DNA from: Proteromonas lacertae
Taxonomy: Eukaryota > Sar > Bigyra > Opalinata > Proteromonadidae
Assembly (NCBI GenBank): GCA_002245135.1
Contig: NGBS01001165.1
Coordinates: 1-64,000 of the forward strand
Length of the DNA: 64,000 bases
Reading direction: 5' to 3'
Shown: piece after piece, positions 30,973 to 53,838 of the stretch
Numbering within the stretch: the first letter of the stretch is position 1
Layout of the letters: the number at the start of each line of letters is the position of its first letter
The notes under the pieces: model-generated
Told to the model about the DNA's origin: nothing
The model's database searches: none
The model's input: the letters and a program-made list of their open reading frames with translations, nothing else
Position numbers and translations under genes: made by a program

Positions 30973-33900
30973 TTACTCAGTTAATATCATTGGATGTGCA
31001 TGGAATTTATCATTTCTAAACACTATTGTACAAAATTTATCTTCTTTTAATAATACACACTCATTTGTTCCAAAGATATTTTCCAATAACTCATCATAAG
31101 GTGATATAAAATGTAAAGTACTATTTACTTTAAATCTTGTTGGAGCTGGTCTTGTATTTGATAATTTCACTTTTATTTTGCCTAGTTTTCTTTTGATATG
31201 ATTGAATGGTTCAAGTATTACTGTATCTTTGTCTTGATAGGCTTTAAATCTTCCATTCTCATAATTCTTTGTGTTTAAATCATAATAAACGATTTTCTGA
31301 TTTTCGCTATATCTAAACTCTTCACTATCTAAACCGATAGGAGATAGAGTTGATTTTATTTCTATACTTCTATTCAATTATATTACATATATAGTAATTA
31401 TACGAATTTAAAACTTGAGGTGGTAAAGCAGGATTTAAATTGAACTTATTAAACTGTGTTAAATCTTCTTTCTTCATATGCTTTATATTGTTTCTGATAA
31501 ACTCAGTAACAGGTGGTGTTGGAGCAAGCTGTAACAATCCTCTCAACATGTCAAATAAATTATCAGGTACAATTGGTAAAAGCTTTGATGGAGATTTAAC
31601 CAATGGTTGAGTTGATGACTCTATCTTCGTTTCTACTTCTAATTCTACTTCTGCTTCAATTACATCATCTGGTTTTGGTGTTTCTGTTGGTGTATAATTT
31701 ATTGTCTCATTTATTATACCCTCTACTAACTCATCTACTTTATTATCATTCTCTTCAATTTCTTCTTCATTTTCTTCTAATTCTTGTCCTTGTTGTTCAT
31801 CTTGTAGTAGTTCATCACCTTCTTTTTCATAAGATTCTTGGGATTGAGATTGATCTTCTTCTTCTTCCTCTTGTTGATTTGGCTCTTCTTCACTATTATC
31901 TTCTTCTTGTCTAATTACTTCTTCTGTATTAACATCTTCTTCATTCTCCTTTTTTTCTTCTGGTTGTTCCTTATCTTGTTGATCTAATTCCTGTTGTTGT
32001 TGTTGATGTTCTTTTTCTATTTGTACTTCTTCTTGTTGTACTTCATACTTTTGTGATTGCATTAGTTCATCTTCAGGTTCATATACATATTCTTCTACTA
32101 CTTGTGCCTGCGGTTGAAATTCTACAAATACCGAATCTTGTAGTTGTGACTTTCCTTCTTGCCGGTTTTTATCATTTTGTTCCTCTTTCTTCTGCTGTGG
32201 TATATTTGATTGTATTTCTTCATTATTTTCTGATGTATCATTTTGAGTTTCTATTACATCTCCTGTAGACACTTCATCAACTATTGGCTTAGTATCTGAG
32301 TTTGATTCCAGTGATGTTTCTACTTCTATTATCTCTGATGTAGGTAATGTTGGCTTTTCAACATCTTTTTCTTTTTCTTGATCAGGTTCAGGTTCTTTCT
32401 TTGGGTTTTCTGGAATATCGTTGAATCTCTATTATTAATATAACATATATCTTTATATGTATATATATACTTTATATTCTTCTTCAAACACATTTAAACA
32501 GTATTCTTTCATTTCTTCATCACTTGGTAAACTCATTTCTTCATTATTCTTTACCTTTTCAAGTAGTTCTTCATAAAATTCAATCTTATAAAATGAAGAG
32601 ATTGATTTCTTCATCAAATCAATTACAATATTATCAAATACACTTCTAGAGCTATGTTTATAAATCTCACTTTCAACTTCATTCTTTTTAGCTGCTATTT
32701 TATTTCTCATTAAATCAAATTCAAGCAAACATTGTATATGATGTTTACATACATCTAAACTATAATCATCTAAAGCATTACAATCATTCAATCTGTCTTT
32801 ATCTGAATAATTTACATTGTTTGTAACTGTATAAATAGAGAAAATATTTTCACTTTCTGGATGTTCTAAATTATGATCGCCTTTTGGATAATCATATTTA
32901 AAAATTTCATTTTGTATCATCCAATACACACAACAACCATGAGCTACAGATTCATCCATATTTAATGTCTGAATTAAATTAAGATTGAATTCTTTCTTTA
33001 TTGTTTCTTGGAATAGTGGAATTCTCATACTTCCACCACTTATTATAATTCCATCTATCTTTTTGTCTTTATTTTTATCACCTAATGAATGTCTGATTAA
33101 TTTACATAATAGATCAGGATATTCTATACTCTGTAATAATTCTTCCAATATTTCTTTACTATATTCTCCTTCATAATCTTCATCATCAGGTAATGCTCCA
33201 TCTATTGAAACAGCAATTGTGTCAGCTCCTTGGGCAGATAATTTACACTTTATTTTCTCTACTTCTACAGTAATTTTTGCTCTTAATTTTGACTTAAACT
33301 TGTCAAATGTTCCATCTCCATAATCGGATAAATCTCCATCACTTTCTTTTGCTGTATTATATATCATTTGCGCAATTGAATTACAGAGCAATTTGTCGAT
33401 ATTTTTACCATTCAGTTCTAAACTGTAACTATTGGATAGTATTTCACATTTATCTCGATTGTATTTTACTAAACTAGATGAACTGTGATAATAACCAATA
33501 TCCATTATTATATAATTCTTTTCTTCATCCATTGATGAGTTATTCTCATATCCATAACATAAACATAAGGCTTCATAATCAGGAATTAATCTAACTATTT
33601 TCATTTTATCTATTCATTATTATTAATATATTTATACATTCATCTTTAAATCTATTGAATATGTTACATATGTTCTTGAAATGATTTGGCTGCAAATAAG
33701 GTGGATAACTTAATATAATTTCTTTCTCATTTTCATTTTCATTTATTATATTATGAATTTCTTTCAAATATAAACAATATAGTTCATAACCATTTAAACA
33801 TATCTCCTTTATTTCCTTCTTTATCCAAATTAAAGTATTTTATCTTGCATTTCTTATTCTCCGTTAGTAATTCGGTTAAATTACGATAAACATTGTTACA

Positions 33901-34238
33901 ACAACGAACCAGCTAAAACAAACTATATTTATTCGTTTATACATTATTTTCAGCTAAACTACCAATATATAATTTATTTGTATCAAATACTTCAATCACA
34001 CTATAGAAATAGTAAAAAGAAACATACGGACTCAGTTTCTTCCCCAGACTATTCTCGATTATTTGTGTTTTATAACCATCACTTGTTTCTATTACTTTGC
34101 TTATTCTTAAGTGTTTAGAGCCAAAATCTATTCCATAAGCTTTCTATTGGATAAAAATCATAGAACATTGTATGGAAAAGATAAAGAGATAGATTTAAAG
34201 TGTAAATATTATATAAATATATATACATCTTGAGACAT
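30973..34238 (-). CDS. Hsp110/Hsp70-like ATPase fusion, paralogue A
   Basis: The start is at 34238 (MSQD, then intron, then KAYGIDFGSKHLRISKV). The Hsp70-fold ATPase shows MDIGYYHSSSSLVKY (phosphate 2), KIKCKLSAQGADTIAVSIDG (Hsp110-like), IIISGGSMRIPLFQ (adenosine site) and LNMDESVAHGCCVYW. Instead of a beta substrate domain, the protein passes through about 60 residues to a helical segment like the Hsp110/Hsp70 lid (RNKIAAKKNEVESEIYKH). A Gln/Glu-rich disordered stretch (about 31.6-32.4 kb), the shared motif LLQLAPTPPVTEF, and a terminal barrel-like module (IVYYDLNTKNYENGRFKA; VKLSNTRPAPTRFKV; SPYDELLENIFG) complete it. Relative to paralogue B it carries one extra T at about 33808, which breaks the frame in exon 4. 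The ATPase is probably a chaperone or nucleotide-exchange module. Role unknown. Confidence 0.7.
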
Positions 34239-34410
34239 TGATAAAAAACAGAATTAAAACGTTATAATTTTCAAGCATTTAGCTTGACTTTTTGAAAAAT
34301 TCAAACTGTTAGTGTATATTTTTTACTGAATGTGAGTTAATTGACAGGAATTGCACAATTACACATGTTTTTTATATTAAAAGTTAAAATTTATAAACAC
34401 TAATTTTCTT

Positions 34411-35752
34411 TTACGAGGTTAATAATAACGGATTTGCATGATACTTCTTTCCTTTTATTTCAATTGTACAAAGTTTATCCTCTTTAAGTAGAGTGCATTC
34501 ACTACTACCGAAAATATTCTCAAACAATTTATCATAAGGTGATATAAAATGTAAAGTACTATTCACTTCAAATCTTGTTGAAGCTGGTCTTGTATTGGAT
34601 AATTTCACTTTTACTAACCCTCTCTTTTTGTTATTCGAATAAACATTAATCATAGTATCTGTAATATTACTTACAAACCTTCCTCCTTCATATGTTCTTG
34701 TTTCATAATCATAATATAGGATTTGTTGTCCTTCATAGTAATTCAGTTCATCATTGTTATTATTCATTGAAGATTTCATATTAATTGGAGATATAGTTGA
34801 TCTGATCTTTGAAGTACTATTGATATAATAATAATAATAATACATTGACATTTTCGAAGAAACTGGTTTTAATAAACATTTATGAAATTGAGTTAAATCA
34901 TCACTACTTATATTACCATTACAACTATTAATGAATTCTATTAATGGAGGAGTTGGAGCTAGTTTTAACAATTCTTTATATACATAAGTTGGTTCATTTC
35001 TGTGTGGATTTAGAGATGGAAATAAATGAGTTGAATTGAAATAACCACTACTCTGCGACTTTCCTAATGATGGTAAGCTCTTATTTGAACTAGATGGAGA
35101 ATAACTTTCTTCTTCTTTTGTACTTATATTATCAATACTTGGTAAAGTAGATATATTATATTGACTCTCTACACAGCGTGGAGGTGATCTTACTGGTGGT
35201 AATATTGCTTCTCTTTCTTTCTCTTCTTCTTTCACTTCATTACCTTCGTTTATTTCAACATTTCTGCCTGTATTTTCTGCTGTTGAATGACTTGTACCAA
35301 AATCATTTTCTTCTTCTTCAAAATCACTTTGATGTTGTATTGCATCACTAACTTCAGAATCCAATATATTAGCAACATAAACATTTTCTACTTCTCTAGA
35401 TATTTGAGCTGTTGCTGTTAGTACATCATTATCTCCTTCATCTGATTCTGGTGTAATGTCTTTATTGTCATTTTCTTCAGTGTTTATTATATTCATTTCT
35501 AAATCTCCTAAATATCCATACTGTCCAATTGCTACTCTTTCTGAAAGTCTTCTATTACCACCACTATCATCAAAATTATTATCTTTCTCTTCTTTTTCAG
35601 TTTCATTTTCCTCCTCTTTTTCTTCCTCTTTCTTTTCTTCATTTTCATTTTCTATCTTTGATTCTGATTGATCTACTTCAGTATTTGTTTCTTTCACTTC
35701 CTCTTTTTTCTCTTCTTCTTGTTTTGTATTTCATTGATCATATTATTAATAC

Positions 35753-35851
<99 letters not shown>

Positions 35852-37882
35852 CTTTTTCTTCTTGTTTTGCTATTTCAATCGGATCAATATCTATTAAATA
35901 ACCATATTGTCCTTTTACATTCATTTCACTTAATTCTCTAGTTAATGCATCACTTTGTAATGATTTTATTTCCATTTCTTTTGTTTCTTCTTCTTCTAGT
36001 ATTTCTGTTTTTGATTCTACTACTTCAGATGATTCTGATAATGAATTGAATCTCTATTATTAATATAACATATATCTTTATATGTATATATATACTTTAT
36101 ATTCTTCTTCAAACACATTTAAACAGTATTCTTTCATTTCTTCATCATTTGGTAAACTCATTTCTTCATTATTCTTTACCTTTTCAAGTAATTCTTCATA
36201 AAATTCAATCTTATAAAATGAAGAGATTGATTTCTTCATCAAATCAATTACAATATTATCAAATTGACTTTTACTTCCATGACCAATTAATCTCTTTTGT
36301 TATATTCTCAATTAACAAACCAATCCTACTTATTTTTTCATTATAATCAATTAGACATTTCACATGATTCTTGATACTATTCATCTCTTCTTCACTTAGT
36401 TTTTTACAATCACCAATTTCATCATCTTCATCAGATATAATATAACTCTTCATCACAATATCAGTCAAATAATTATCATTTTTATTACACGAATGACATA
36501 ATTCATATTGAAATACTTCATTTTGTATCATCCAATATACACTACAACCATGAGCTACAGATTCATCCAAATCTAATGAATCAATTATTTCAACATTAAA
36601 CTCTTTCTTAATTGTTTCTTGGAATAACGGAATATTCATATTTCCACCATTTATTATGATTCCTTCAATCTTTAAGTCTTTATATTCATCTCCTATTGAA
36701 TCATGAATTATTTTAACTAAAATTTCTGTTAGTTTACTATCTAATATCAACTTTTCGAAATTGGTTTTACTATATTTATCTTCATATTCAACATCATCAG
36801 GTAAACCATTTTCAATAAAAATATCAGTTGAATCTGAAGTACATAACTCACTCTTAATATTCTCAACTGAAATTAATATCTTTTCTTTTAACTCATTAGA
36901 AAATGTATCAAATGTTCCATCTCCATAAGCTGATAAATCTTCACAGTCATCTGGATCTTCAGCCTGTAATTTGGCTTGTTCTTCACAAGCTTTTGTATAT
37001 ATCATTTGTGCAATTGAATTACAGAGTAATTTGTCGATATTTTTACCATTCAGTTCTAAACTGTAACTATTGGATAGTATTTCACATTTATCTCGATTGT
37101 ATTTTACTAAACTAGATGAACTGTGATAATAACCAATATCCATTATTATATAATTCTTTTCTTCATCCATTGATGAGTTATTCTCATATCCATAACATAA
37201 ACATAATGGCTTCATAATCAGGAATTAATCTAACTATTTTCATTTTATCTATTCATTATTATTATTAATATATTTATACACTCATCTTTAAACAAATCAA
37301 ACAGAATATTTATATTTTCCAAATAATGTTGCTTTAAATATGGTGGATAACTTAATATAATTTCTTTCTCATTTTCATTTTCATTTATTATATTATGAAT
37401 TTCTTTCAAATATAAACAGTATAGTTCATAACCATTTAAACATATCTCCTTATTTCCTTCTTTATCCAAATTAAAGTATTTTATCTTGCATTTCTTATTC
37501 TCCGGTTAGTAATTCGGTTAAATTACGATAAACATTGTTACAACAACGAACCAGCTAAAACAAACTATATTTATTCGTTTATACATTGTTTTCAGCTAAA
37601 CTACCAATATATAATTTATTTGTATCAAATACTTCAATCACACTATAGAAATAGTAAAAGAGAAACATACGGACTCAGTTTCTTCCCCAGACTATTCTCG
37701 ATTATTTGTGTTTTATAACCATCACTTGTTTCTATTACTTTGCTTATTCTTAAGTGTTTAGAGCCAAAATCTATTCCATAAGCTTTCTATTGGATAAAAA
37801 TCATAGAACATTGTATGATAAAAGATAAAGAGATAGATTTAAAGTGTAAATATTATATAAATATATATACATCTTGAGACAT
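34411..37882 (-). CDS. Hsp110-like ATPase fusion, paralogue B (frame-broken, poly-Lys tract)
   Basis: It has the same plan as paralogue A and near-identical DNA, including introns, from the start (37882) through much of the ATPase, so A and B are a recent tandem duplication. It differs by an extra T near 37206 (DYEA|LCLCYGYENN) and a +1 frame change near 36290 (ENIT then RLIGHGSKSQFDNIV). The linker is acidic and carries two GQYGYL-D motifs separated by a poly-Lys run encoded by the 96-T tract. The C terminus keeps LLKLAPTPPLIEF, a module reading ILYYDYETRTYEGGRFV, VKLSNTRPASTRFEV, SPYDKLFENIFG, and an end at LLLTS. Either a decaying copy or one disturbed by sequence indels. Confidence 0.6.
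35756..35851. repeat. 96-bp poly-T (poly-A on coding strand)
   Basis: Uninterrupted run of 96 T inside paralogue B. On the coding strand it would encode 32 lysines (AAA). It is liable to replication and sequencing slippage, so length and frame across it are uncertain. Confidence 0.9.
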
Positions 37883-37980
37883 TGATAAAAAACAGAATTA
37901 AAACGTTATAATTTTCAAGCATTTAGCTTGACTTTTTCAAAATAGATATGAATTTTATCCTTTTAAACAATAAAGAACAA

Positions 37981-40900
37981 CTAAATAAAGTATTTATTGT
38001 ATATTTCTTTTGCTATTTCGCATACTTCTTCATTTGGAGAATTTATCAATTTAGAAATTGGCTTTTTCATCATTTCAGAGTATTTGCTATTCAGACAGAG
38101 TATCTTGCTGTATATATTTAAAATACTTTTTTTTCTTTTCAAATCATCCCACTCATATCCATGAAGATCTATTGTTTCATGTTCAATTAACTCTTTCATA
38201 GTATTAAATATTGCAGGAGTAATAATTACATCAATATCTTCAGAAGTTTTGTTTGAGATACTAGTATCAATACTCTATAAATATAGTAATTACAATTTTC
38301 TATATACATCAATTATATTCTCTTGAATATTTATTGGTAAGATTATATAACTTCTATCTTTTAGTTTATTTTCATTCCACATATCTTTCGATGAACAATA
38401 TTCTAAAATACCAAATAATGCTTCAACATATCCCTTTGAACAAACAATTGCTATTTCTTCTATTTTATATTCACCAGCTATATTTGCTAATACTCTCAAC
38501 TGACTAGATATGTTGAATGACTGTGGATTCTGCAGGTATTTGAAATATTTATCTAAAAACGAATGATTTAATACATATTGTCTAGAATTATCATAACTCA
38601 ATAATCTATCTATTATGTCTATTACATTCTCATTTATTCCTTTATATACTATTTCAACTATTAACACACTTAAGATGTCTTTTTTAATAAACACATCTAT
38701 ATATCTCTCGTCTTCATTAATAGCATTATATACTTCAGCAAGATATTTGTTTCTGCCTTTTTTACCACTTCTTAATAATCTCATATACTCTTTAACATTA
38801 TTTCTGATTATCTCATTATCATCATATTTTAGAATTCTATCAATCAATGAATTTATATGATCATGTCCTTCTCGAATTCTATAACTATTCTTTGAAATTC
38901 TTAAAAAACATAACAATTTTTCACTATCATTTAATATTAATTCTCTTGCGCCTTTGTCTCTTTCAATTAAATCATCTAACACAATAAGAGGAGAAGAATC
39001 TCCCTTTTCGTCTAACACATATTTAATTATATATGGTATATAATTAATATCTACTACTACATCCTGAATCTTTACATTACTATCAGATAAACAGTTCTTT
39101 AGAAATTTAATTACATTTTCTGTTATTCTATCTTCATTTAATTCAAATAATTTCGTAATATTAAATTGAATATGATTATTTATCATTCTGTTGATAAAAT
39201 CATCTCTGATCAATGATATATGAACAACTATGTAGCTCAGAATATAACTTATTATTTCACTATCCATATGATTATTAAATAAGCTTAATGTATCTGATAA
39301 GAGTAAATCTAGATCTGATTTTTTGCTGTTGCTAATAATTAATAACAAAAATGAACATGTTAATATCTCTTTCTCTGTTGGATTAACCTGTAGATAATAA
39401 AAACAATAAATATATACTTCTTTTATTTTATCATCAATAATTCTTTGTATAACATCAATCCTATTACTATCTTCAATTATTACAGTAAAGCGTGATATGT
39501 TTTTATTAAAAACAAATTCATTTCCTTTAATGTCTATTTCGTTAATTATATATGGAAAAAAAGAATCATCAAATAGAAAACAGTTATTAGAAACAGCTAT
39601 CCCAAATAATGTCTCATTATAATAACAACCACCTGAATTTTTGGATAATATACTATCAATTAGTTTTATATTTTCATTAAATTCTTTGTACTTACATAAG
39701 CTTAGAATGAATTGTGATGTTACACAATTATCAAACCCTATATCAATTATTTTCTCTATAATACCACTTTCTAACAACAAATTGACTGGGAAACATTCTT
39801 TTTCTACATGAATTTTAACTATATTAATTGCAGAATAATAATTGTTTTTGAGAATTTTGTATGATAATAAATGAACCTTCTTAATATTTTCTTCATCATG
39901 TAAAGTAACATAAGATGATAATGCTATAAGGAATTTTAATTTTCTACAGAATTTATCTGTTGATTCCGTCTATAAATAGAAATTATTTAATAATATACAA
40001 TTACAAAAAATTCTATTATAATATCTAAAACACCTAATTTGATTAGTCTCTTCATATATCCATCATCTTCTTTTGATACTGTCATTACTATAAAGAAAGA
40101 CTTCTCTCTTATATCTTCGTAATTACATTTCATTAAATTCACAAAAATAACTAGTCGACTTTTTATTTCTTTTTCAAATAATTCCAATACACTTTCTTGT
40201 CTATTATTCATATATTTTATCATTATTTTCATTTCATGTAATACACTTAATGTAGTATAATCATTATTATTTGAAATAACAGTAAGAAAATAGTTGAATA
40301 TGGAAGATACTGTTGTTAACTGTTGATGTTGATCTAATCCTGATAAATAATTAACAGTAAATCTACATATCAGTTTCAAAAACAACTTGTCATCATAGAG
40401 CGGAATAAATTCCATAACTCTTGATAGTATGTTCTGCAATTCTATTTCATCTATCTCTTTTCTATGATAGGCCATAATACTATTAATAAAATCAACTGAT
40501 GAATATATAAGATCTTTATTTGTAGATAACAGGTTATATTTAACTTGCTGTAAAATGTTAACATTAAATAGATCATCAATAGGTTTGTCTCTTTCAATAC
40601 AATTCTTTATTATATCTTGTATATTAGTCATTATTTCTTCATTTTCACATTCATAATATCTATCAGAAAAATATTTTGGTATGTCATTGAAAATTACATC
40701 ATTTCTTTGGTCTGAATCACTAATGCCTGATAAAGCTTTAGTTAAATATCTAATAACATCTAAATCCCAAATATCTAACAACATTTTACATAATTCAGTG
40801 GGTGTACAAATATTACAATCAGCATAATACACATCTCCATCATATCCAAAGACAATACATAGAATAAATGATGCAATCTGCCTTTTATTTATTGAAGAAT

Positions 40901-41874
40901 ATGACTAGAATATAGGAATATATTTATATATATGTATGTATACGTCTTTCACTATTTCTTTCATTTTTAATTTTGCAACAATTTTTGAGTATGACATTGA
41001 AGATAATACTCTAGTTCTATCGCTATAATCATCTAAACATATCATTATCTTTGGAAATATGTATTTATTAAAAATAAATGAAGTATCAGTAAATGCTACA
41101 AAAGTAAGAATTTTACACGTTCCGTAAATAATATCATAATCATCAAATTTTTTAAGAAAAGAGCTTAATCTTTTTAACATTCTTTCTTCATATAATTCTT
41201 TTATATATTCTTTCCTATCTATTGATATAATCACTCTACTCAGGATAACCAAAACTTTATTTAAATTCATAACATCCTCATTCCATATATAACTAATTAA
41301 TTTCGATTGTATTGATGTTTTTGTTAATATATCCTCACAGTAAATACAGATATATTCTTGGTTAATTTTTTTCGTTACAAGTATTTTATTGTCAATTCTT
41401 TTGTAAATACTATCAATCATCGAATTACATGTATTTTTATCATCAAGTATGTTTTCAATAACTTTGCTAATCACTTTAATATCATTTTCAAATGTATATG
41501 AATTACATAACAATTGAAACAAAAAATATGTTGCATTGCTTAACTGTAATAGATTTTTTGACTGCAAAGACTATTAATAATAAAAAATAACACCATACTA
41601 CATGAATTACAACCTCAAGCTCAGAAAGAATAGCAGGATTACTTTCATATAAGTGAAATACACTCTTAAATATTGTATCTATATCATCAAATCCTACAAG
41701 TTTTAATAATATATGGAAATATTTATAATTTATTCTATTATCTACCACAGTTTCTTTAATTAGCTTTAATTTAAATTCTTGTTTATCTTCTGAGTTTTCT
41801 GATGTTGAAATATCTAATTCTTCTTGCTATAATATAAACATAAAACAATTTAATACATTGGTTAATAAATTCAT
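37981..41874 (-). CDS. Large ARM/HEAT-repeat protein of unknown function
   Basis: At least seven exons. The start is set at 41874 (MNLLTN, spliced to QEELDISTSENSED), because a hydrophobic open frame further upstream has no start support. The product, about 1,200 residues, is almost wholly amphipathic helices with Ile/Leu/Asn/Asp-rich text typical of armadillo solenoids (FHILLKLVGFDDIDTIFKSV; LNKVLVILSRVIISIDRKEY; VLSVLIVEIVYKGINENVID style units). One region (FVNLMKCNYEDIREKSFFIV) reads like a canonical ARM repeat. It ends NEEVCEIAKEIYNKYFI before TAG/TAA near 37981. There is no membrane helix, signal or catalytic motif. It sits between two Hsp110-like genes, so a scaffolding role with them is possible but unproven. 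Confidence 0.6.
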
Positions 41875-42064
41875 TACAAAAATAAAGAAATTTATTGGTG
41901 ATATTGAATAGGTTTGATTATGGCTTGAAGTGAAATGAGACACACAATATATAATAGCAGATACTAGTGATAATAGATTTAGCAAAAAACATAAACAAAG
42001 GTATATCAATAAAACTGTAATATAAGAGAATAATATAATATAATTTCAACAAATGAAGGTTTTG

Positions 42065-43588
42065 TTACTTGTATTTTGCTATCAACAATTGATAATTTTC
42101 TTTCCATTGTTTATAATCTGGTGTGTTTTTGTATAATAAACAAAATGCACATGTTTTTTGTATTTTAAGTGTCAATTTCCCATTCTTAACGAAATACTCA
42201 TAAGGTCGACAATGTCCACCATTTCTTTTATTACTACCATTTTTTTTATTACTACCATTTTGACACTTGTACCTTTGCTTTCCTCTAAAATCCTCATCTT
42301 CATCAAATTTTTTAGGTTTTCCTTTACTATCAGTAGGTGTTAAATCATATCTGTGAAATACCTTTATTCCTCCACATTTTTTACATCTATATTTATCATT
42401 TTTCACACATTCATAACAAATATCATCACCTAAATATTTGATGAAGAATATTTTACAATCCCAATTTCCACAATTATAACATTGTTTCATATTATCTTCA
42501 CATTTAATAAACTTTTTATATTCTTTTTGTTTCTCTAAATCATTTTCAAATTCTTTCTGAATATTAGTATTTTTTATTAATGGTGTTTCGGCAGATGAAA
42601 TGAAAGGATATATACTATCCCATTCTCTACGTTTATTTGTATTTACAGCAGGACATATACATGTATGTTTTTTTAATCTTTCAGCAAATTTTATCTCTTT
42701 ACTATTAGATTTCTTTGCTTTTTTATTATCACATCGATCGTCATTGTTACATTCATTATTATGTTTTCTTTTGTTACTTTTTCTACTAACTGTATGATCT
42801 TGAATAAATCCATCACATCCTTCACACAAACTGCTGTCTTGCACAGTTGTTGAAGGATTTTTTGAAAGTTCAACTCTTGCATATGCTTGAGAAGAAAAGC
42901 GTTTTTCTTGACAAATACTACTACTTATAATAGCACTTGTCATTGAGTTTGAACTTCCACATTCAATTGCATTGTTGCCTGGATATACAAGATTATCATA
43001 AACACTGATGTTTGTTGCTGCTGTTGAATGATTTACTGATGACGAAGGCTGTTGATAATCATCTTCAGGTAAAGGACCAATATCTTTTTTAATGCTTGCA
43101 TTAATTCTAAATATGTGATTAAAATAATAATCTGTATCTCTGCTCTCATCTTTCTCATATAATTCACATAGTTGTACTTCTGGCGGTTCTAAAATGTTCA
43201 TATAATCATATTCAAATGCTTGTTGAGGTTGAGGTGGTGATTTTGATTGTAACAGCTGATTCTGTGGAATTGATTGTAGTGGTGATTGCACTTGTACATG
43301 ACGGTTAATATCATCTTCAGGAAGTACAAAATCTATACCACCTGAATCGCTTGTGTCTACATAACTTTCTTCTTCTACACAAATTTCTGGTGGGTTATAA
43401 AATGGATCTGAAAAAAATAAAGAATTACAACAACCATCTGACAAATATCCTTCCTCTTCTGATAGATTTGCTTTGTCTCGATGAGTAAACAGTACTCTAT
43501 CAACAGTGTCGAGTTTGTAATCACCATATTTAACTGTATTTCTTCCTTTTTCATCATGCTCAGCTGTATTAAATGTCTGGTTATCCAT
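42065..43588 (-). CDS. GATA-like zinc-finger protein (putative transcription factor)
   Basis: Single exon of 507 residues, starting MDNQTFNTAEHDEKGR. The first 280 residues are acidic and Ser/Gln/Pro-rich, like an activation region. A basic segment (KSNKRKHNNE, KKAKKS) precedes the zinc finger: CYNCGNWDC...DDICYEC has the C-x2-C-x17-C-x2-C spacing of GATA fingers. A second Cys/His group follows (YRCKKCGGIKVFHRY ... KCQNG ... GGHCRPYEY), and a late pair (CAFCLLY) may bind another zinc. A small repeat (NGSNKKNGSNKRNGGH) sits between. It is probably a DNA-binding regulator of the nucleus. It departs from classical GATA in the loop (KIFFIKYL in place of TPLWRRG), so its target may differ. Confidence 0.55.
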   Translation of the reverse strand: MDNQTFNTAEHDEKGRNTVKYGDYKLDTVDRVLFTHRDKANLSEEEGYLSDGCCNSLFFSDPFYNPPEICVEEESYVDTSDSGGIDFVLPEDDINRHVQVQSPLQSIPQNQLLQSKSPPQPQQAFEYDYMNILEPPEVQLCELYEKDESRDTDYYFNHIFRINASIKKDIGPLPEDDYQQPSSSVNHSTAATNISVYDNLVYPGNNAIECGSSNSMTSAIISSSICQEKRFSSQAYARVELSKNPSTTVQDSSLCEGCDGFIQDHTVSRKSNKRKHNNECNNDDRCDNKKAKKSNSKEIKFAERLKKHTCICPAVNTNKRREWDSIYPFISSAETPLIKNTNIQKEFENDLEKQKEYKKFIKCEDNMKQCYNCGNWDCKIFFIKYLGDDICYECVKNDKYRCKKCGGIKVFHRYDLTPTDSKGKPKKFDEDEDFRGKQRYKCQNGSNKKNGSNKRNGGHCRPYEYFVKNGKLTLKIQKTCAFCLLYKNTPDYKQWKENYQLLIAKYK

Positions 43589-43808
43589 TTATTAATAAAA
43601 CCAAATAAACCAACAGATTTGATTATCATCCAATCCATGTACAGCAGAGTAGGCTAAAATTTTTCTCTACAGAATTTTTTTTCTGTAGAAATTATATACA
43701 TTACATTCATTTTAAATTTAAATTTCAGTATATACAACAAAAAAACAAATATATATTAGTAATAATATTATTACACGTTAAAGTAATTCATTTAATATCT
43801 ATTATCTT

Positions 43809-46800
43809 TTATTCAAACACACCAGGATGAACTCTCTTATACATATTATCACCTACTTCAATAGTGAAACGTTTTTCTCTTTCTCTAAGTATTTCAGCTT
43901 CATTACATCCCACTACTCTATCCAATAAATCAGCATAAGGCTTTTTAAAATGAACTTTGCATCCAGGTAGAAAAGCCGTTTTATAAGGTCTAACATACTC
44001 ACTTTCTATTACCACATCACCCTTATATTTATCATCTGGAGCTATTTGTACATAATTATTCTCTAAATAGCATTTAAATAAACCAGGAGCATATAATTTC
44101 TTCTCCTTATCCAAATAAAACACACTTTGTAGTTCATGATATCTATTACCATTATCATCATTGTTATTTCTTCTCTTTGTGGGTGATAAGGTCGATTCTG
44201 GAGGTCTTAAACTCTTCAACATTTGAAGATCAGGTGTAATTGGACGAACACCAGTTGTACATTTAAATTGTTCAAGTCTTGATTTGGTTAATATACAATC
44301 TGTATCACTTATATACTCCATCAATGCTGGAGTTGGTGCTAATGTTAATAGATATTGAATTGGGTCATTCATTCCTCTATAAATGGAAGTTCTTGAATCA
44401 GTAAATGTCTGATTGGGAGATGGAATACGATTACCAGAACTTAAACTCCATGGTTTATATACTTCTTCTTCAGGTAATTCACAGGATCCAAATGCATAAT
44501 TGAAATCAATTCCTCTTAAAGCTGGATCTAATTCACGTTTCTTCTCTTCTTCTACTGTTCGAATTATATTGCCATCTGCATCTACTATATTACCATCAGC
44601 ATCCATTAATTCACCATCTTCATTTAAATGGTATTTTGATTCATCAATTACTTTTCCATTTTCATCGACTAATTCTCCCTTTTCATTACGATAATATTTT
44701 CCTTGTTTCGCTTTTCTGATGATATTACCATTTGCATCAACTTGATTTCCATCTTTATCTAATAATTCTCCATGATTTCCTAATATATATTTAGTTTCAT
44801 CAATCACATTACCATTCTCATCAACCAATTCACCTCTTTCATTTCGATTATATTTGCTCTTTCTACCTTTAAGAATTGATTTTCTCAATATATTACCATC
44901 TTTATCAACTATATTTCCTTCAGCATCTTCTAACTCACCATCTTCATTAACATGGAACTTTGATTCATCAATTACATTGCCTTCTTCATCAATTAATTCA
45001 CCATCTTTATTTCTATGATAAAGATGAGATTTTCTAAGTATATTTCCATTCTCATCAACTACATTGCCATATTCATCTAATAATTCACCAGCTTGATTCT
45101 GTTTGAATTTCCTACTTCTAATTATATTACCTTTAGCATCAACAATATTTCCATCTCTATCTTCAAGCTCTCCATTCGCATTTAAGTGGTATAAATTTTC
45201 ATCAACTATATTACCATCTTCATCAACCAATTCACCATTCTCATTTCTATGGTATTTACCCATTCTTGCCCTTCTCAATATATTACCATCAGCATCAACT
45301 ATATTACCATCTTGGTCAACTAAATCACCATCTGCAGTGAGATAAAACAATTTTTCATTGATAACATTCCCATTTTCATCAACTAATTGACCATTTTCAT
45401 TTCTACGGTAGTGTTTTTTAACATAAGTTGATTTTCTTAAGATATTACCATGAGAATCGACAATATTACCATATTCATCTTCCAATTCACCATTATTATT
45501 CAAATGATATAAGTTAGAATCAATCACATTACCATCTTCATCTATTATATTTCCATCTTTATCAATCTTATAAAATGGAACATTATTCTTATTATTCTTA
45601 CTGCTATAAGGTCTAATGATATTACCAAATGAATCAACAATATTTCCTTCTTTATCTTCTAACTCACCATCTTCGTTTATATGATAAAGTGATGAATCTA
45701 TAACATTACCATCTTCATCAACTATATTACCATCAGCATCTATATGATACTTTGGTTTTATTAAATTACTACGATTCTCTCTCTTAATAACGATATTTCC
45801 AGCCCAATCTACTATATTTCCATCATCATCGACTAGTTCTCCATCTTCATTCAAATGATATTTGCTTTCATCAATTACATGACCTTCATCATCCATTAAA
45901 ACACCTGCTTCACTTCTGTGATATTTTCCTGCTTTTGCTGTTCGAATTATTTTACCTTTTGAATCTACAATATTACCTTTATCATCGACTAATTCGCCTT
46001 TTTCATTTAAATGGTATTTTGATTCGTCGATTATATTTCCATCTTCATCAACAAGTTGACCATTTTCATTACGATGATATTTTCCTTGTTTTGCTGGTCT
46101 TATGATATTTCCTTCAGAATCTACAATATTTCCATCACTGTCTACCAACTCGCCATTCTCGTTCAATCTATATTTACTTTCATCAATCACATTACCATTC
46201 TCATCAACCAATTCGCCTTTATCATTTCGATGATATTTGCTCTTGGCTCTCCTAATTATATTACCCTGTGAATCGACAATATTACCATATTCATCTTCCA
46301 ATTCACCGCTTTCGTTCAATCTATATTTACTTTCATCAATAACATTACCATCTTCGTCAACTAACTCACCATTCTCATTTCTATGGTATTTCTGTATTTC
46401 TTCTTCTTTAGATTCTGTTATTGGTGTTGGAACAATAATATTACCAAATGCATCAACTATATTTCCTTCATTATCCACCAATTCACCATTTTCATTCAAA
46501 TGATACTTTGATTGATCAATTACATTACCATTTTCATCAACCAATTCACCTTTTGAATTCAAATGATAATTACGGTTCTTCACATCAATATCTGAAGCTA
46601 ATATACTTGTTCTTGCTCTGGAAGATGAAGGAATTGGATTTCCATCTTTATCAACAATATTTCCATTCTCATCTATCAAATCTCCATTACTATTGAGCTT
46701 GTATTTTTCATTCACTAAGTTACCATTTGAATCAACAACTTTACCATCTTCATTAGTAGAATATACTTCAGAATCAGCTCGAGGAGTTGTTTGTTTGCTT

Positions 46801-49156
46801 AAAGCGATTGATTGTCTCTTTATTAATTCTTTCTGTGACTTTTCTGCTACTATTTCAGACTTTCTACAACTTTGAATTAATTCTTTGAATTCTTCTGGAT
46901 CATAGGCAGGTGTAGCTGGTGGTAATATTTGGTCAATCTCTGGATCAGGTGGTTCATATACAGCTTCTGGAAGATTGACCGATATTTCTGTAACTTTCTA
47001 TTTAAAATAGTAATAAATTAATTATAAATCATACTTTATATTGTTCTTCTATAATCTGTAAATAGCAATCATCAGCTAATTCATCAATTGATGGTAAGTT
47101 TCTATTACTTGTCAATTCATCTAATAATCTCTCCATTGGTATTTCATCACCTATCATTATATGTTTCTTTAATTCAATATAAAATGTTTTGGGTAAATAG
47201 TTAGATTCTGGTTTCTTTAAGAATTCTAATACTTTCTTATGATATTCAGTTTGATAAGGCTGTTCATAGACAGTTTTCTCAACATCATTCTTTAAATCAG
47301 CAATTTCTGATCTTGATTCTTCAAAGTTCAATATTTCATTAATTCTAGTTTCTATTGCAGTTAATTGAGCTTCACTCAATGGTTGTGGTGTTAAAATTGT
47401 TTTATCATCTTCATCAATACTTATACATTGAGTTACCATATCTATGATCTTTTCTTCAAATAATTCTTCAGTTGAATTTTCAGGATTTGAGAATGGCAAA
47501 CCCATTGAACCAATTAATGAATAATTCAACCATTTTCTCGATTTTAATAAGTAATAAGCACTACAACCATGTGATACTGATTCATCCATATTTAATGAGT
47601 TAATAAGACTAATATTATATTTATCTTTAATAACATTTTGTAGTAATGGAATTCTTAAACATCCTCCACTGATTATTATACCTAATGGAACATCTTCACC
47701 TATTTTTGAACCTTTGATTGCTTCTTGGATTAATTTTATTAATATTTGTGGGAATTCATTCTGTTCTAATAATGCATTTAATAATGAAACACTATAAGTT
47801 CCTTCATAATCTGTTTCGTTGGGTAAAACACCATCAATTCGTATTTTTATCTATTCAAATATAATAACATACAAATATATATACTGTATCTGCACCTTCT
47901 GAACTTAATTTGCATTTAATATCCTTCATTGCTTCTTCTATTTTAGCTTGAACCACTGGCTTGAATGTTGAAAATGTACTTGGAGTTATTGCTGACTTTC
48001 TTACACTATTACCACCACTCTTCATTTCTTCTTCTCCATCTTTACTATCTTCTTTTCCTTCTATTCCATTACCTCTGCCATGAGTTTCACCATAGATAAC
48101 TCTACTGATATATTCACATAACAATTGATCTATTTTCTTACCACATATTTGTCTAGTATATCGACTTGCTAATATATTTGTTTGAGTTGAAGTATATTGC
48201 ACTATACTACAACTTGTATGAGTATAACCCATATCTAATAACACGTATATTTGTTCACCTTCAGTTGTTATTGAATTTTCATATCCATAACACAAAGCTA
48301 AAGCTTGATAATCTGGTATAACTGACTTTATTAACAAATGATCTATATAAAAACATATATATGTTTATATATATATACATCTTGGTAAAAATTTATGATA
48401 AATTGATTTAACATTGGATATATGATTCTTATTGAAATATGGTGGAACAGCAAGAATACATTCATAACTTTTAATCTCATTCATTGAAGATTCAGGTAAT
48501 GCTGGCATTCCATTCTCTAAATTGTTCATTTTAAATGGGTCAGAACTCTCATCTGGGAAAGCCACTGGAATTCCTGGAATGAATGTCATATCTGGAGCTT
48601 TCTCTTCAGTTTTGGCTATTTCATGAGAAGGATCAATGATTGTTGTTATTTGAGATATATAATATGCATATAGTTCATAACATGTTAGAGTAATCATATT
48701 TTTATTTTCATCTGTTTGAAGGAAGGGGAATATTTTTTCTTCATTTTGTGCAATCATTTCATTTAAATCTGTGAAATAGTTTGGTGCACATCTTATTTTC
48801 TATTTTATGAATAATTCGATAAAATTTATACATTACCTGTTGCATGTAAACCAATATAGGATTTCTCCTTATCAAATACAAGAATAACACTAGAATATAA
48901 ATTTTTGAATTAATACGGAGTCTGTTTTTTACCTAGATTATTATCTACAGTTTGGACATAGCACTTTCCAGCTTTCTCAGTGGATTTTGATATTTTCAAT
49001 GAATCTCCACCAAGATCAATTCCATAAGATAACTAGATACATTATATAAAGAAAGTGAATTAGATTAAGAAATTAAAGAAAAAAGAAATAAGCAAAATTA
49101 ATGAGTATGAATGAATATAATATAAATACCACATCACTGCTTTTCAAATCATTCAT
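43809..49156 (-). CDS. Hsp110-like ATPase fusion, paralogue C, with long D-x-D-G-N repeat array
   Basis: It starts at 49156 (MNDLKSSDV, then a long intron, then LSYGIDLGGDSLKISKS). ATPase landmarks: LAVPPYFNKNHISNVKSIY, DMGYTHTSCSIVQY, KCKLSSEGADT, IIISGGCLRIPLLQ, LNMDESVSHGCSAYY. A lid-like helical part follows (LTAIETRINEILNFEESRSE). From about 46710 to 44560 the protein is a tandem array of roughly 45-50-residue units built on NENGELVDEDGNVIDES-KY and GNIVDSDGNIIR. The end keeps YLLTLAPTPALMEY, STLSPTKRR, and the terminal module (SVFYLDKEKKLYAPGLFKCY; YKTAFLPGCKVHFKKPYADL; AEILREREKRFTIEVG) to HPGVFE. No frame break seen. No signal peptide, so cytosolic or nuclear. Confidence 0.75.
44560..46710 (-). 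repeat. Coding tandem repeat array in paralogue C
   Basis: About fourteen units with the alternating pattern HRNENGELVDEDGNVIDES and G-N-I-V-D-x-x-G-N-I-I-R, each about 45-50 residues. Units are similar but not identical, and synonymous sites differ, so the array is old or under protein-level selection. The D-x-D-G-N core recalls calcium-loop chemistry and the fungal DUF3659-type repeats. Confidence 0.85.
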
Positions 49157-49303
49157 TATAAGGAATTAGATATAAAACGAAAGCCGTTACTAAATAATCG
49201 GCTTGATTTGAAAGATCAGATCTTGTCCGTTTTTTCTTTATTTTTCAAATTTAAACACAAATAAACAAATAAAATCACATGTATTATACATAAATAGAAT
49301 AAT

Positions 49304-52300
49304 CTATGCAAAAATAAGTGCATTTACATCTTTGTACCTTGTACCTTTTATTTTAATACAGTATTTGCCATCACATTACTTTCAATATTTCAGCTTCATT
49401 ACCACCTAATCTCTTCATCAATACTTCACTATATGGACTAATAAAATGGACAATCTGTCCTGGCTCATATCTTGCTGGTTTGTATTTTCTAACATGTCTT
49501 CTTTCAACAGTTCTTTTACCAGTTTCATGATTTACTATTTCCACATATATATCATTAATTTCAGTAGCAAATCGTGCTTTAGTCCAGGATCTATTATATT
49601 CTTCATAATATTCAATCGTTTCATCTCTCTTAAATATCAAATTACCTTTTTCATCATATTCATCTGCATTTGTATTGATGTTATTAAAAGTACTATTAAA
49701 AGTTTCATCTAATGGAGCAGTTGAAGAGAAAGATTCATTGAATGATACATTTGGTAATAATGAATTACTGGTATTATTATTATTATTGTTGTTGTTGTTA
49801 CTCATATAATTATTATTATCTCCATCATTATTGATGTTATTATTATCAAAATTATAAGTATTATTTGCCATTGGTGTTGGTGGATTGGATAGTGTAATTT
49901 TACTACTGCTATAGTGATGTGAATTTCTTCTAAATGATGATGATGATTTTCCTGTACCAAATAATCGTGAAGTAACATTTGTGCTACAAGGTGAGAATGT
50001 AGATCTACATGGTTTTCCTGAACTTATTCTTTCAGATGTAATAGGTGTAAGAGGAGTTGATTTTCTAAACAATTTCAAATTGTCAATAGTTAAACGACAA
50101 TTTGGTTGTTTTAAAAACTCTGTCAAAGCAGCAGATGGTTGCATTTTCAATAGATATTGTATTGGATCATTCCTTTGGCATTTCTTACCAGTTTTATGTG
50201 GTTCTAATTCTGGAGCAGTTGCTGGTCGTTGTGGCATTAATGGCCATGGTTGATATTGTTCCTCTGGTTCTAATGTTGATCCCCACAAATCCCAATTCAG
50301 TCCACTTAAAGCAGCATTCATTCCTTTATCTCTAATCTCTTCAGCACTTACAATTACATTACCATCTTTATCAACAATATTTCCATTTTCATCTTCTAAT
50401 AAACCATTTTCATTTAAGTGGTATTTTGATTCATTGATGATATTTCCATCTTCATCGACTAATTGACCATCTTTATTACGATGATACTTACCTTGTTTTG
50501 CCTTTTTAATTATTTTACCATCTGAATCTACGATATTTCCGTCTTTATCCACTAATTCTCCATTTGCATTTAATCTATATTTACTTTCATCTATCACATT
50601 ACCATTTCCATCAATCAATTCACCTTTTTCATTTCGACTATAATTACCAAGTTTCTCTTTCTTCTTCATAATCTTTCCATTAGCATCAACTACATTTCCA
50701 TCTTTATCTACTAACTCACCATTCTCATTCAATTTGAACTTATCTTCATCAATAACATTCCCATTCTCATCTACTAATTTACCATCTTCATTTCTACGAT
50801 AATTACCTTCTAATGCTCTTCTAATTATATCTCCATATTCATCAACAACATTACCATCATTATCAAGTATTTCATGATTATCATTATATCTATATTTGGT
50901 TGGATCTATTATATTACCATTTTCATCTATGATTTTCTGTCTACCAACTAATTTACCATTTGAATCAACTTCATTTCCATTCTCATCAACAAGAATTCCA
51001 TCTTCAGTTAAGTGATATTTTGATACATCAATCACATTGCCATTTTCATCAACTAACTCACCTTTATCATTTCGTTTGTGTTTTCCTAATTTTTCATTCT
51101 TCTTTTTGATAATTTTACCATCTTTGTCAACTATATTACCATCTTCGTCTTCTAATTCACCATTCTCATTCTCTTTTATCTTCTTTTCTCCTTTCTTTCG
51201 TATTATATTTCCATCTTTATCTACCACATTTCCATCCTCATCTACTAACTCTCCATCTTCATTCAAATGGTATTTATCTTCATCAATTACATTACCATCT
51301 TCATCAACCAATTCACCATTCTCATTTCGATGATATTTCTCTTCATTGTTATCTAACTCAGCTTTAGTAACATTTCTTGATAATTTTGATTTATTATCAT
51401 TTTCATCACCATTTTCACCATCATCACTATCTTTACCAGTAACTGGTGTATTAACTTTGCTCCTTCTTATCTTTTCCATTGTATCTTCAAATATAATCTC
51501 AGACTTTCTCACATTAGTAATCAAATCATCAAACTCTTGTCTATTCAAAGCAGGATAAGGTTTTGGTAAACTATCAACACCATCTTCACCAGCAGGAATA
51601 AATGTAGCACTTGGTAAATTGATTTTGATGTTATTCAACTTATTATATTGATCATTAATCAATTGAATATAACAATCATTTACTAATTCGTCCATTGGAG
51701 GTAAAGGTCTGTTGGTGACTTCTTCTAATAATCTTTCAAGTGATATTTCTTTACCTCTTTCTATATAATCTTCTAATTCTGTATAAAACTTCAATGGTAA
51801 ATAACCAGACATTGGTTTCTTCATAAAATCTAATACTTTTTCATGAAACTCTGTTCTTAACATTTGTTCATAGATTTTACTTTCTACTTTGTTCTTTGCT
51901 GCTGCAATTTCATTTTTTTTACTCTCGAATTCTAATATTTCATTAATTCTTGTTTCTATTGAAGATAACTGAGTTTTATCTAACATTTCAGGTGAAAGAA
52001 TTGACTTATCTTCTTCATCAATGTTTATACAATTTGAGACTCGATCAAATCCTTGTCTTTCATCATCATCATCTTCTTCTAATTGTTCATCTTCTTTTGA
52101 TTTATCTCTCAACTTACCAATCACTGAATAATTATTCCATAATCCATGCAAATTCAACCAATAAGCACTACAACCATTTGCTACAGATTCATCCATATTT
52201 AATGTTTGAATTAACTTCAGATTCAATTGTTTTGTAATTGTTTCTTGTAGTAATGGAATTCTCATACTTCCACCACTTATTATACAACCTTCCACTGTAG

Positions 52301-53838
52301 CTTCTTCACCTATATTTGACTCTTTAATTGCTCTTTTGATTAATGTAATTAATATATCTGGATAATTGTTATTGGTTAGTAAATTATCTAAGATTTCTTT
52401 ACTATAAATACCTTCATAATCTTGATCATCTGGCAATCCTCCTTCTATTGATAAATTCACTGTATCTGCACCTTGAGCTGATAATTTTCTTTTAATGTCT
52501 TCCATTGTTGAAAATATCTTTGTCTTTAATTTATCTTTGAATTTATCTAAATAATTATCATTATCATTATTATTATTACCACCTTCAGAATCAGGTTTTG
52601 GTGTTGAAGTTGTAGATGTGGCAATTGTTGTAGCAGTATCTTTGAAAATTGGTGTATTTGGTGAATCGACACTATCAACTGCCATCTGTTCATTGACTGG
52701 ATTTCCTTCTAAATATATTTCTTTAGCAATTGATTCAGACATTAAATCATCAATCTTCTTACCACAAATCTTTCTTGTAAAACAACTGGAAAGGATATTA
52801 CATCGATTGGCTGTATATTGAACAACTGTTGCTGATGTATGGCTATATCCCATATCAACTATTATATATATTTGTTCTGTTGAACTTGTTATTGTATTTT
52901 CATAACCATAACAGATAGCTAATGCTTCATAATCTGGAATTACACTGTCTATCTTAATTTGATCTATATATTATATTATATTATTAAATATGTATATATA
53001 TATACATACATCTTGATTGAAATTTCTTATACAATCTCAACAAATTCTTCACATGCTTTTCATTAAAATATGGTGGAACAGCTAATACACAGATATAACA
53101 ACTACTATCATTATTAGCACCTAAAACACTAGAATTAAGATCATCAATAGAAGAACTAGCGTAGGATGATTGTACTAAATCAACAAATGATTTATTATTT
53201 GAACTTTCATCATTTACATCAGAAGGAGGTACAGGAACACCTTTTGCTCTCACATCTTCAATGAATGTATTTTCAGTGTTATGTTTGTTTAATATGGATG
53301 GATCTATTATATTAGTGATTTGAGACATGTATAATGAGTAAAATTCATAACATGTCATTGTTATGTAATTGTTACTGGTTGATGTTTGAAGATAAGGGAA
53401 TGTCCTTGCTTGATTCTCAGCGATCATTTCATTTATATCTGAAAAATAATTAGGAGAACATCTCACTTTCTATAGAAAAAGATAAATTGAGTTATTTCAT
53501 ACATTACTTTTAGCAATTTCACCAACATAGGATTTATCTTTATCAAAAGCAATTAATACACTAATTTAAAATAGATTAGCAATGTTATACGGAGTATTCT
53601 TCTTTCCTAAAGAATTTTCAACTATATTAATCGTAAAAGAATCATTAGTTTTATTTATTTTGGAAATCTCCATTAATGAACTTCCTATATCCAATCCATA
53701 TGCCAACTATACCATAAGAGTAATAATAATTAGTAATGAAGAATAACAGACATATTATAACTAATAGCAAGTCAAAACAAAAAAAGATTAGTATATAATA
53801 TCAATATATACAGCTTGAGAACTTTCTGTAGTAGTCAT
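49304..53838 (-). CDS. Hsp110-like ATPase fusion, paralogue D, with D-x-D-G-N repeats
   Basis: It starts at 53838 (MTTTESSQA | LAYGLDIGSSLMEISKI). Four small introns fall near the same places as in C. ATPase landmarks: VLAVPPYFNEKHVKNLL, VDMGYSHTSATVVQY, KRKLSAQGADTVNLSIEGG, IISGGSMRIPLLQETI, LNMDESVANGCSAYW. The lid-like segment (SSIETRINEILEFESKKNEI) precedes an array of about eight NGELVDEDGNVIDE-type units (about 51345-50345). The shared YLLKMQPSAALTEF helix, an Asn-rich spacer, and the terminal module (GRSW context: YNRSWTKARFATEINDIYVE; RKYKPARYEPGQIVHFISPY) follow. The main frame ends at TGA (49371-49373) inside that module. One base over, the text continues DGKYCIKIKGTRYKDVNAL to TAG at 49304, matching the ends of A-C, so a +1 slip or indel is present. 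Confidence 0.7.
50345..51345 (-). repeat. Coding tandem repeat array in paralogue D
   Basis: About eight units of the same D-x-D-G-N family as paralogue C, with some Lys-rich linkers between units (for example IIRKKGEKKIKENENGEL). Confidence 0.85.

What the first reader, a model, noticed from the sequence alone, without database searches (positions are those of the whole stretch)
30973..53838. Four-member family of Hsp110-type ATPases fused to repeat linkers and a terminal barrel-like module
Genes A, B, C and D share a plan I do not know from any described chaperone: Hsp70/Hsp110 ATPase, lid-like helices, a fast-changing linker (Gln/Glu-rich, poly-Lys, or D-x-D-G-N repeats), a conserved LAPTP-type helix, and a C-terminal module of about 90 residues. 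The conserved ends with divergent middles suggest the ATPase drives a scaffold that presents variable linkers. This is the best candidate in the window for an undescribed system.
Basis: partly seen in the sequence, partly recalled or inferred. Interest (0 to 1): 0.9.

Follow-up and report, generated by a model that had tools for sequence, protein, structure and literature searches.

The report
Clamp-less Hsp110-like proteins with Tudor-like tails
Four neighbouring genes in an unnamed protist encode relatives of the Hsp110 chaperone that lack the usual client-binding part and carry instead a long variable spacer and a small Tudor-like barrel; they are one branch of a larger family in this genome.

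Summary
The architecture is real, with corrections. In gene D the second half of an Hsp110-like nucleotide-binding domain (NBD), lid-like helices, repeat linker, LAPTP-type helix and C-terminal module lie in one exon of 1,196 open codons, so they form one protein. C is open after joining small introns; A has one frame break and B three, and B's poly-Lys stretch is a 113-base poly-A run beside a break. The C-terminal module begins with a predicted Tudor-like barrel and was found only in these four genes of the 50-Mb genome. The NBD is nearest Hsp105/Sse1, but the client-binding beta-sandwich is missing and the classic catalytic lysine is not conserved. Best reading: they keep the two surfaces with which Hsp110 grips Hsp70 and use the tail as an address, as tethered Hsp70 nucleotide-exchange factors. 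The anatomy is shown; the function is inferred.

The parts
49371..53753 (-). Gene D: 5 exons (53753-53748, 53706-53591, 53560-53503, 53469-53010, 52963-49371), 1410 aa, open
   Evidence: GT..AG introns joined by hand give one open frame; no transcript evidence
51636..52961 (-). D: NBD lobe II and lid-like helices, SBD-beta absent between them
   Evidence: PF00012 match ends at profile position 369; Hsp105/Sse1 are the best PDB matches; NBD-to-lid spacing 92 residues
50304..51341 (-). D: linker part with D-x-D-G-N repeats (DUF3659-like), acidic; ends approximate
   Evidence: PF12396 66 bits; tandem repeats; net charge of residues 657-1143 is -40
50058..50174 (-). D: LAPTP-type helical motif (here KMQPSAALTEFL)
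   Evidence: alignment; predicted helices in the C homologue
49374..49622 (-). D: C-terminal Tudor-like module, lacking the last two strands predicted for C
43809..49156 (-). Gene C: 7 exons (49156-49130, 49032-48917, 48889-48832, 48799-48379, 48342-47885, 47850-47035, 46997-43809), 1694 aa, open; the short first exon is the least certain
44529..46769 (-). C: linker part with D-x-D-G-N repeats; ends approximate
   Evidence: PF12396 124 bits
43977..44156 (-). C: first barrel of the C-terminal module, Tudor-like
   Evidence: AlphaFold2 model; VIA-align rows at model residues 72-131
43830..43958 (-). C: second small module (strand, helix, three strands), fold not assigned
   Evidence: barely tested by the rows
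34411..37882 (-). Gene B: same plan, three frame breaks (two in the NBD/lid part, one by the poly-A run); pseudogene or badly polished copy
   Evidence: long branch
35756..35868 (-). B: poly-A run read as poly-Lys
   Evidence: TRF period 1, 113 copies, 92% matches
30973..34238 (-). Gene A: same plan, 7 exons, Glu/Gln-rich linker, one frame break in exon 4

Best explanation
A-D are a tandem clade of clamp-less Hsp110-like proteins. Each keeps the nucleotide-binding domain and lid-like helices, the two kinds of surface with which Hsp110 holds the NBD of Hsp70 open, but lacks the SBD-beta client clamp; the catalytic lysine is lost as well. In their place stand a long acidic linker, a helical motif and a Tudor-like barrel. 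Most likely they work as tethered Hsp70 nucleotide-exchange factors: the NBD binds but hardly hydrolyses ATP and, with the lid, opens Hsp70; the linker gives reach; the barrel fixes the protein to a ligand (a methylated protein tail, nucleic acid or an RNP), so that Hsp70 cycling is quickened at one place. Shown by sequence: domain order, loss of SBD-beta, loss of the lysine in C and D, clade, a C-terminal module confined to this locus in this genome. From a structure model: the barrel fold. Inferred: exchange activity, weak hydrolysis, tethering, ligand.
Confidence: 0.42

Rival explanations
1. Dead-chaperone scaffolds: the NBD is a nucleotide-locked pseudo-enzyme used only as a fold, and the family is a lineage-specific radiation of adaptor or recognition proteins whose tails do the work, with no role on Hsp70.
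For: Loss of catalytic positions in D, C and A; divergence and many copies; tails differ between paralogs (Gln/Ala-rich in L053, another conserved tail in L021).
Against: Motifs around the nucleotide are invariant in the 7 sequences of alignment A3, and lid signatures persist in 14 outside rows, which a mere scaffold would not need.
Confidence: 0.3
2. One reading: an active ATPase drives a scaffold that presents variable linkers.
For: Conserved ends with divergent middles.
Against: Catalytic lysine lost in C and D, its segment missing in A; no SBD-beta or Hsp70-type interdomain linker to transmit ATP state.
Confidence: 0.08
3. SBD-beta replaced in function: the linker, helix and barrel form a new client-binding unit, so the proteins are specialised holdases rather than exchange factors.
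For: The C-terminal module is conserved while the linker before it is not; acidic segments also occur in Hsp110 (recalled).
Against: The barrel resembles Tudor domains, not a peptide clamp; linker lengths differ (289 in A, 487 in D, 875 in C).
Confidence: 0.12
4. A side question, not exclusive of the others: A and B are decaying copies, or an assembly artefact of a recent duplication, and only C and D function.
For: Of the four frame breaks two lie in blocks of 99% A/B identity, one in a block of 81% and one by the poly-A run; B branch 0.67 against 0.055 for A.
Against: C-terminal modules of A and B are open and conserved; breaks could be base-calling errors in near-identical copies.
Confidence: 0.6

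Closest known systems
Hsp110 (yeast Sse1, human HSP105)
   Same: Nearest solved relatives of the NBD by sequence; Hsp110-type phosphate loop; lid-like helices; nucleotide-contact motifs
   Different: No SBD-beta; catalytic lysine lost; large acidic linker and Tudor-like barrel added
HSPA13/STCH
   Same: An Hsp70-family protein without the substrate-binding domain (passages of PMC9691929)
   Different: HSPA13 is an ER Hsp70 whose NBD is 39% identical to BiP (same passages); A, C and D show no signal peptide by eye in the models, are Hsp110-like and keep lid-like helices and tails
Tudor domains (TDRD3, SGF29, UHRF1, SMN)
   Different: No convincing sequence match in Pfam or the PDB (best E 0.38); cage aromatics incomplete; no fusion to an Hsp110-like NBD found in the paper search made
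DUF3659 repeats (PF12396)
   Same: C and D linkers score 124 and 66 bits
   Different: These D/G/N repeats also score with unrelated families such as flagellar hook domains, so kinship is doubtful

Membership tests
Hsp110/Grp170 | Hsp110-type NBD | tested here: met
   HSP105 and Sse1 head the 79 PDB sequences matched; canonical Hsp110 L063 lies nearer the clade than the Hsp70s
Hsp110/Grp170 | SBD-beta sandwich after the NBD | tested here: not met
Hsp110/Grp170 | Lid alpha-helix bundle | tested here: inconclusive
   K/R-N-x-x-E-x-x-Y signature present in A, C, D; alignment to the Sse1 lid only 1.7 bits
Hsp110/Grp170 | Nucleotide exchange on Hsp70 | not testable with these tools
   needs biochemistry
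Canonical Hsp70 | Catalytic lysine and GGGT phosphate-2 loop | tested here: not met
   Asn at the lysine in D and C, segment missing in A; DMGYSHTS in D and DMGYTHTS in C
HSPA13/STCH | Hsp70-type NBD close to BiP, no substrate-binding domain | tested here: not met
   SBD-beta missing as in HSPA13, but the NBD is Hsp110-like; HSPA13 facts from passages of PMC9691929
Tudor domain | Tudor-type barrel fold | tested here: met
Tudor domain | Aromatic cage for methylated residues | tested here: inconclusive
   two of four positions aromatic in all four proteins by hand comparison with recalled SMN positions; no residue-level superposition
DUF3659 (PF12396) | Score over the Pfam cut-off | tested here: met
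   66 and 124 bits against 24.8, but composition bias likely

The most novel reading that the evidence does not exclude
This protist has turned Hsp110 into a modular kit: dozens of clamp-less NBD-lid cores, each with its own address tail (Tudor-like barrel, Gln/Ala-rich, acidic and others), acting as place-specific switches of Hsp70 activity, with A-D the branch addressed to Tudor ligands such as RNP granules or chromatin.
Probability: 0.22. Interest if true: 0.78.

Novelty: new variant of a known kind. Interest (0 to 1): 0.52.

Why it matters
If an Hsp110 can shed its client clamp and still serve, the exchange and holdase functions of Hsp110 are separable by nature's own experiment, and the role of its beta-sandwich, which one review calls unclear (PMC4753570, passages), becomes testable. 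A large family with varied tails would also be a new way to route Hsp70 to places in the cell.

Tried and rejected
Organism: not identified. The small-subunit rRNA is eukaryotic; EF-1alpha lacks the 12-residue insertion of animals and fungi (marker recalled; sequence), so I set fungi aside. Pelomyxa schiedti was considered for its 52.4-Mb genome and set aside because the paper gives 5337 scaffolds against 1181 contigs here (search listing, passages); this is no proof.

Relatives: D lobe II to lid as a single query found none at E 0.001 among 7997 scored candidates; the C-terminal part of B found none at E 0.1 among 282; the C-terminal alignment found none in viral contigs or in genome contigs, a bacterial and archaeal set. 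An alignment of 7 NBD-lid sequences found 455 proteins among 8000 scored. Of the 120 listed, P0001-P0003 (66-67% identical to L021) and P0004 (34% over 39%) look of this kind by eye; the other 116 all carry PF00012 and, where named, are mostly Hsp70, DnaK or BiP, and I did not read them. L021 and P0003 share a tail (52% identity) that shows no kinship with the A-D module. In one search a sixth row, on contig C143 (E 0.006), was checked: it lies in a Pro/Asn/Gln-rich stretch and gives 10 bits, E 18, against the module, so I dropped it. No convincing sequence match of the module in Pfam (best E 0.0099, unrelated families) or the PDB. The second beta-module has no fold match; barely tests it.

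Literature (open-licence papers only): Hsp110 with gene family expansion and protist, 0 papers; DUF3659, 0; Hsp110, Hsp70, Tudor domain and fusion, 1, a review without such a fusion in the passages seen. Of I saw listings (20 of 71, 3 of 3, 12 of 28, 5 of 5, 8 of 14); of PMC4753570 and PMC9691929 passages only.

Rows dropped: in the spacing count 27 of 47 rows lacked one signature, among them the Hsp70-type rows L005 to L008, so only BiP L003 and Hsp110 L063 serve as controls; L001 was set aside because its motif fell on an earlier site. The tree used 40 rows after removing identical pieces and the window's own loci; 13 of 37 inner branches are starred. The 59 loci come from 92 of the 100 rows (8 lie in A-D), include pairs with equal scores that may be two haplotypes, and rest on 67 of 223 candidates scored, so the true number may be lower or higher; I read DNA of only part of them.

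Full report
What is there. The region 30973-53838 holds four genes on the minus strand. I joined exons by hand at GT..AG borders that mostly recur at matching places among the copies. D (53753-49371) gives 1410 residues and C (49156-43809) 1694, both open. A (34238-30973) and B (37882-34411) share the plan but do not read through: A has one frame break and B three. Linker and barrel are not separate genes there. No transcript was available.

A and B. They are a mosaic: blocks of 99-100% identity (for example about 34240-33743 of A) alternate with blocks of 47-82%, and the linkers align poorly. This looks like recent duplication or gene conversion of the 5' half. Of the four breaks two lie in blocks of 99% identity, one in a block of 81% and one by the 113-base poly-A run, so base-calling errors and pseudogenes are both possible.

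The N-terminal part. Pfam finds PF00012 up to profile positions 369-399 of 599 in the pieces. Against the PDB the first 656 residues of D match HSP105 and Sse1 best (4e-11, 9e-11), then Hsp70s (1.2e-7 and weaker). In an alignment with BiP, cytosolic Hsp70 and the genome's own canonical Hsp110 (L063), D and C have Asn where Hsp70 has the catalytic lysine, and A lacks the segment; L063 and L053 keep the lysine, L056 does not. The phosphate-2 loop is DMGYSHTS in D, nearer to Hsp110 (DMGEASAY in L063) than to Hsp70 (DLGGGTFD). The motifs GGxxRI and KxxLS are kept in C and D and invariant in the 7 sequences of alignment A3; B has Asn for the Arg. Residue roles are recalled from the Hsp70 field.

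The missing clamp. Between the NBD-end motif and the lid signature lie 83, 91 and 92 residues in A, C and D, 49-101 in 14 outside rows, 166 in BiP L003 and 256 in Hsp110 L063 (20 of 47 rows had both signatures). PF00012 stops at 370-378 in 6 of 6 paralogs scanned and runs through in both controls. SBD-beta is therefore absent in every case that could be read.

A larger family. With D as query, 92 rows outside A-D form 59 loci on 41 contigs, with the caveats told under Tried and rejected. In a tree of 40 rows A-D are one clade (100/99) within a group of 30 rows (89/85) in which all rows with a readable junction are clamp-less; L021 is the nearest relative (95/87); Hsp70s and the canonical Hsp110 lie outside. 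Against a single loss: L053, clamp-less, groups with L063 (98/96). Tails differ: L053 is Gln/Ala-rich, L025 and L023 charged. L021-type proteins exist in other public assemblies: P0001-P0003 are 66-67% identical over 84-97% of L021's NBD-lid frame, and P0003 carries a tail 52% identical to that of L021. This suggests, as inference, that such cores and tails are kept by selection beyond this genome. A-D-type C-terminal modules were found nowhere else in the searches made.

The linkers. Residues 657-1143 of D, 633-1507 of C and the 289-residue A linker carry net charges of -40, -80 and -69, and the 252-residue open part of B's -38. D and C repeats score as DUF3659 but also as flagellar hook domains, so the name says little. 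The genome search for DUF3659 reported one match, in D, and missed C, so it undercounts and does not show that the repeat is confined here.

How it most likely works. A review (PMC4753570, passages) says that Sse1 faces Hsp70 NBD to NBD, fixes it open by further contacts of its alpha-helix bundle, needs ATP binding but not hydrolysis, and that the client binding mode of its beta-sandwich is unclear. A-D keep the parts needed for the first and lack the part for the last. I therefore read them as tethered exchange factors with an address.

Novelty. Hsp70-family proteins without SBD are known (HSPA13; passages of PMC9691929), as are Hsp110s and Tudor domains. The combination, an Hsp110-like core without SBD-beta plus linker plus Tudor-like barrel, and the radiation of such cores, were not found in the listings of my paper searches. 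I file it as a new variant of a known kind.

Noticed in passing
G000, 59 loci listed: A large radiation of Hsp110-like genes with differing tails; all 14 outside rows with a readable junction lack SBD-beta.
   Followed up: partly
G000: Hsp70 itself is also multiplied: 65 matches with 54 of 365 candidates scored.
   Followed up: no
window 37882-36096 and 34238-32471: A and B are mosaics of 99-100% and 47-82% identical blocks, as after gene conversion.
   Followed up: partly
window 35756-35868: 113-base poly-A run inside B.
   Followed up: partly
L021 615-1148 and P0003: A different conserved C-terminal tail on the nearest paralog, shared with a protein from another assembly, no Pfam family over its cut-off.
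   Followed up: partly
L053 2364-3431: Clamp-less paralog that groups with the canonical Hsp110, followed by a Gln/Ala/Pro-rich frame.
   Followed up: no
L014, minus strand: Another Hsp70-like frame of 288 residues, seen by eye next to the spurious C143 row.
   Followed up: no
G000 C146, C375, C573, C1005, C1155, C102: Tubulin hits in divergent pairs by position; the pair in L035 was read as alpha and beta.
   Followed up: no
window 54367-56472: ORFs of a HEAT-repeat protein next to D on the plus strand (PF02985 in 54705-55259).
   Followed up: no
window 12422-18383: Two ORFs that by eye look like ABCA-type transporters.
   Followed up: no
window 38290-41570: Three long ORFs between B and C without a Pfam match over the cut-off, by eye alpha-helical.
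   Followed up: no
L071 after about 1800: rDNA unit followed by a long stretch of N.
   Followed up: no
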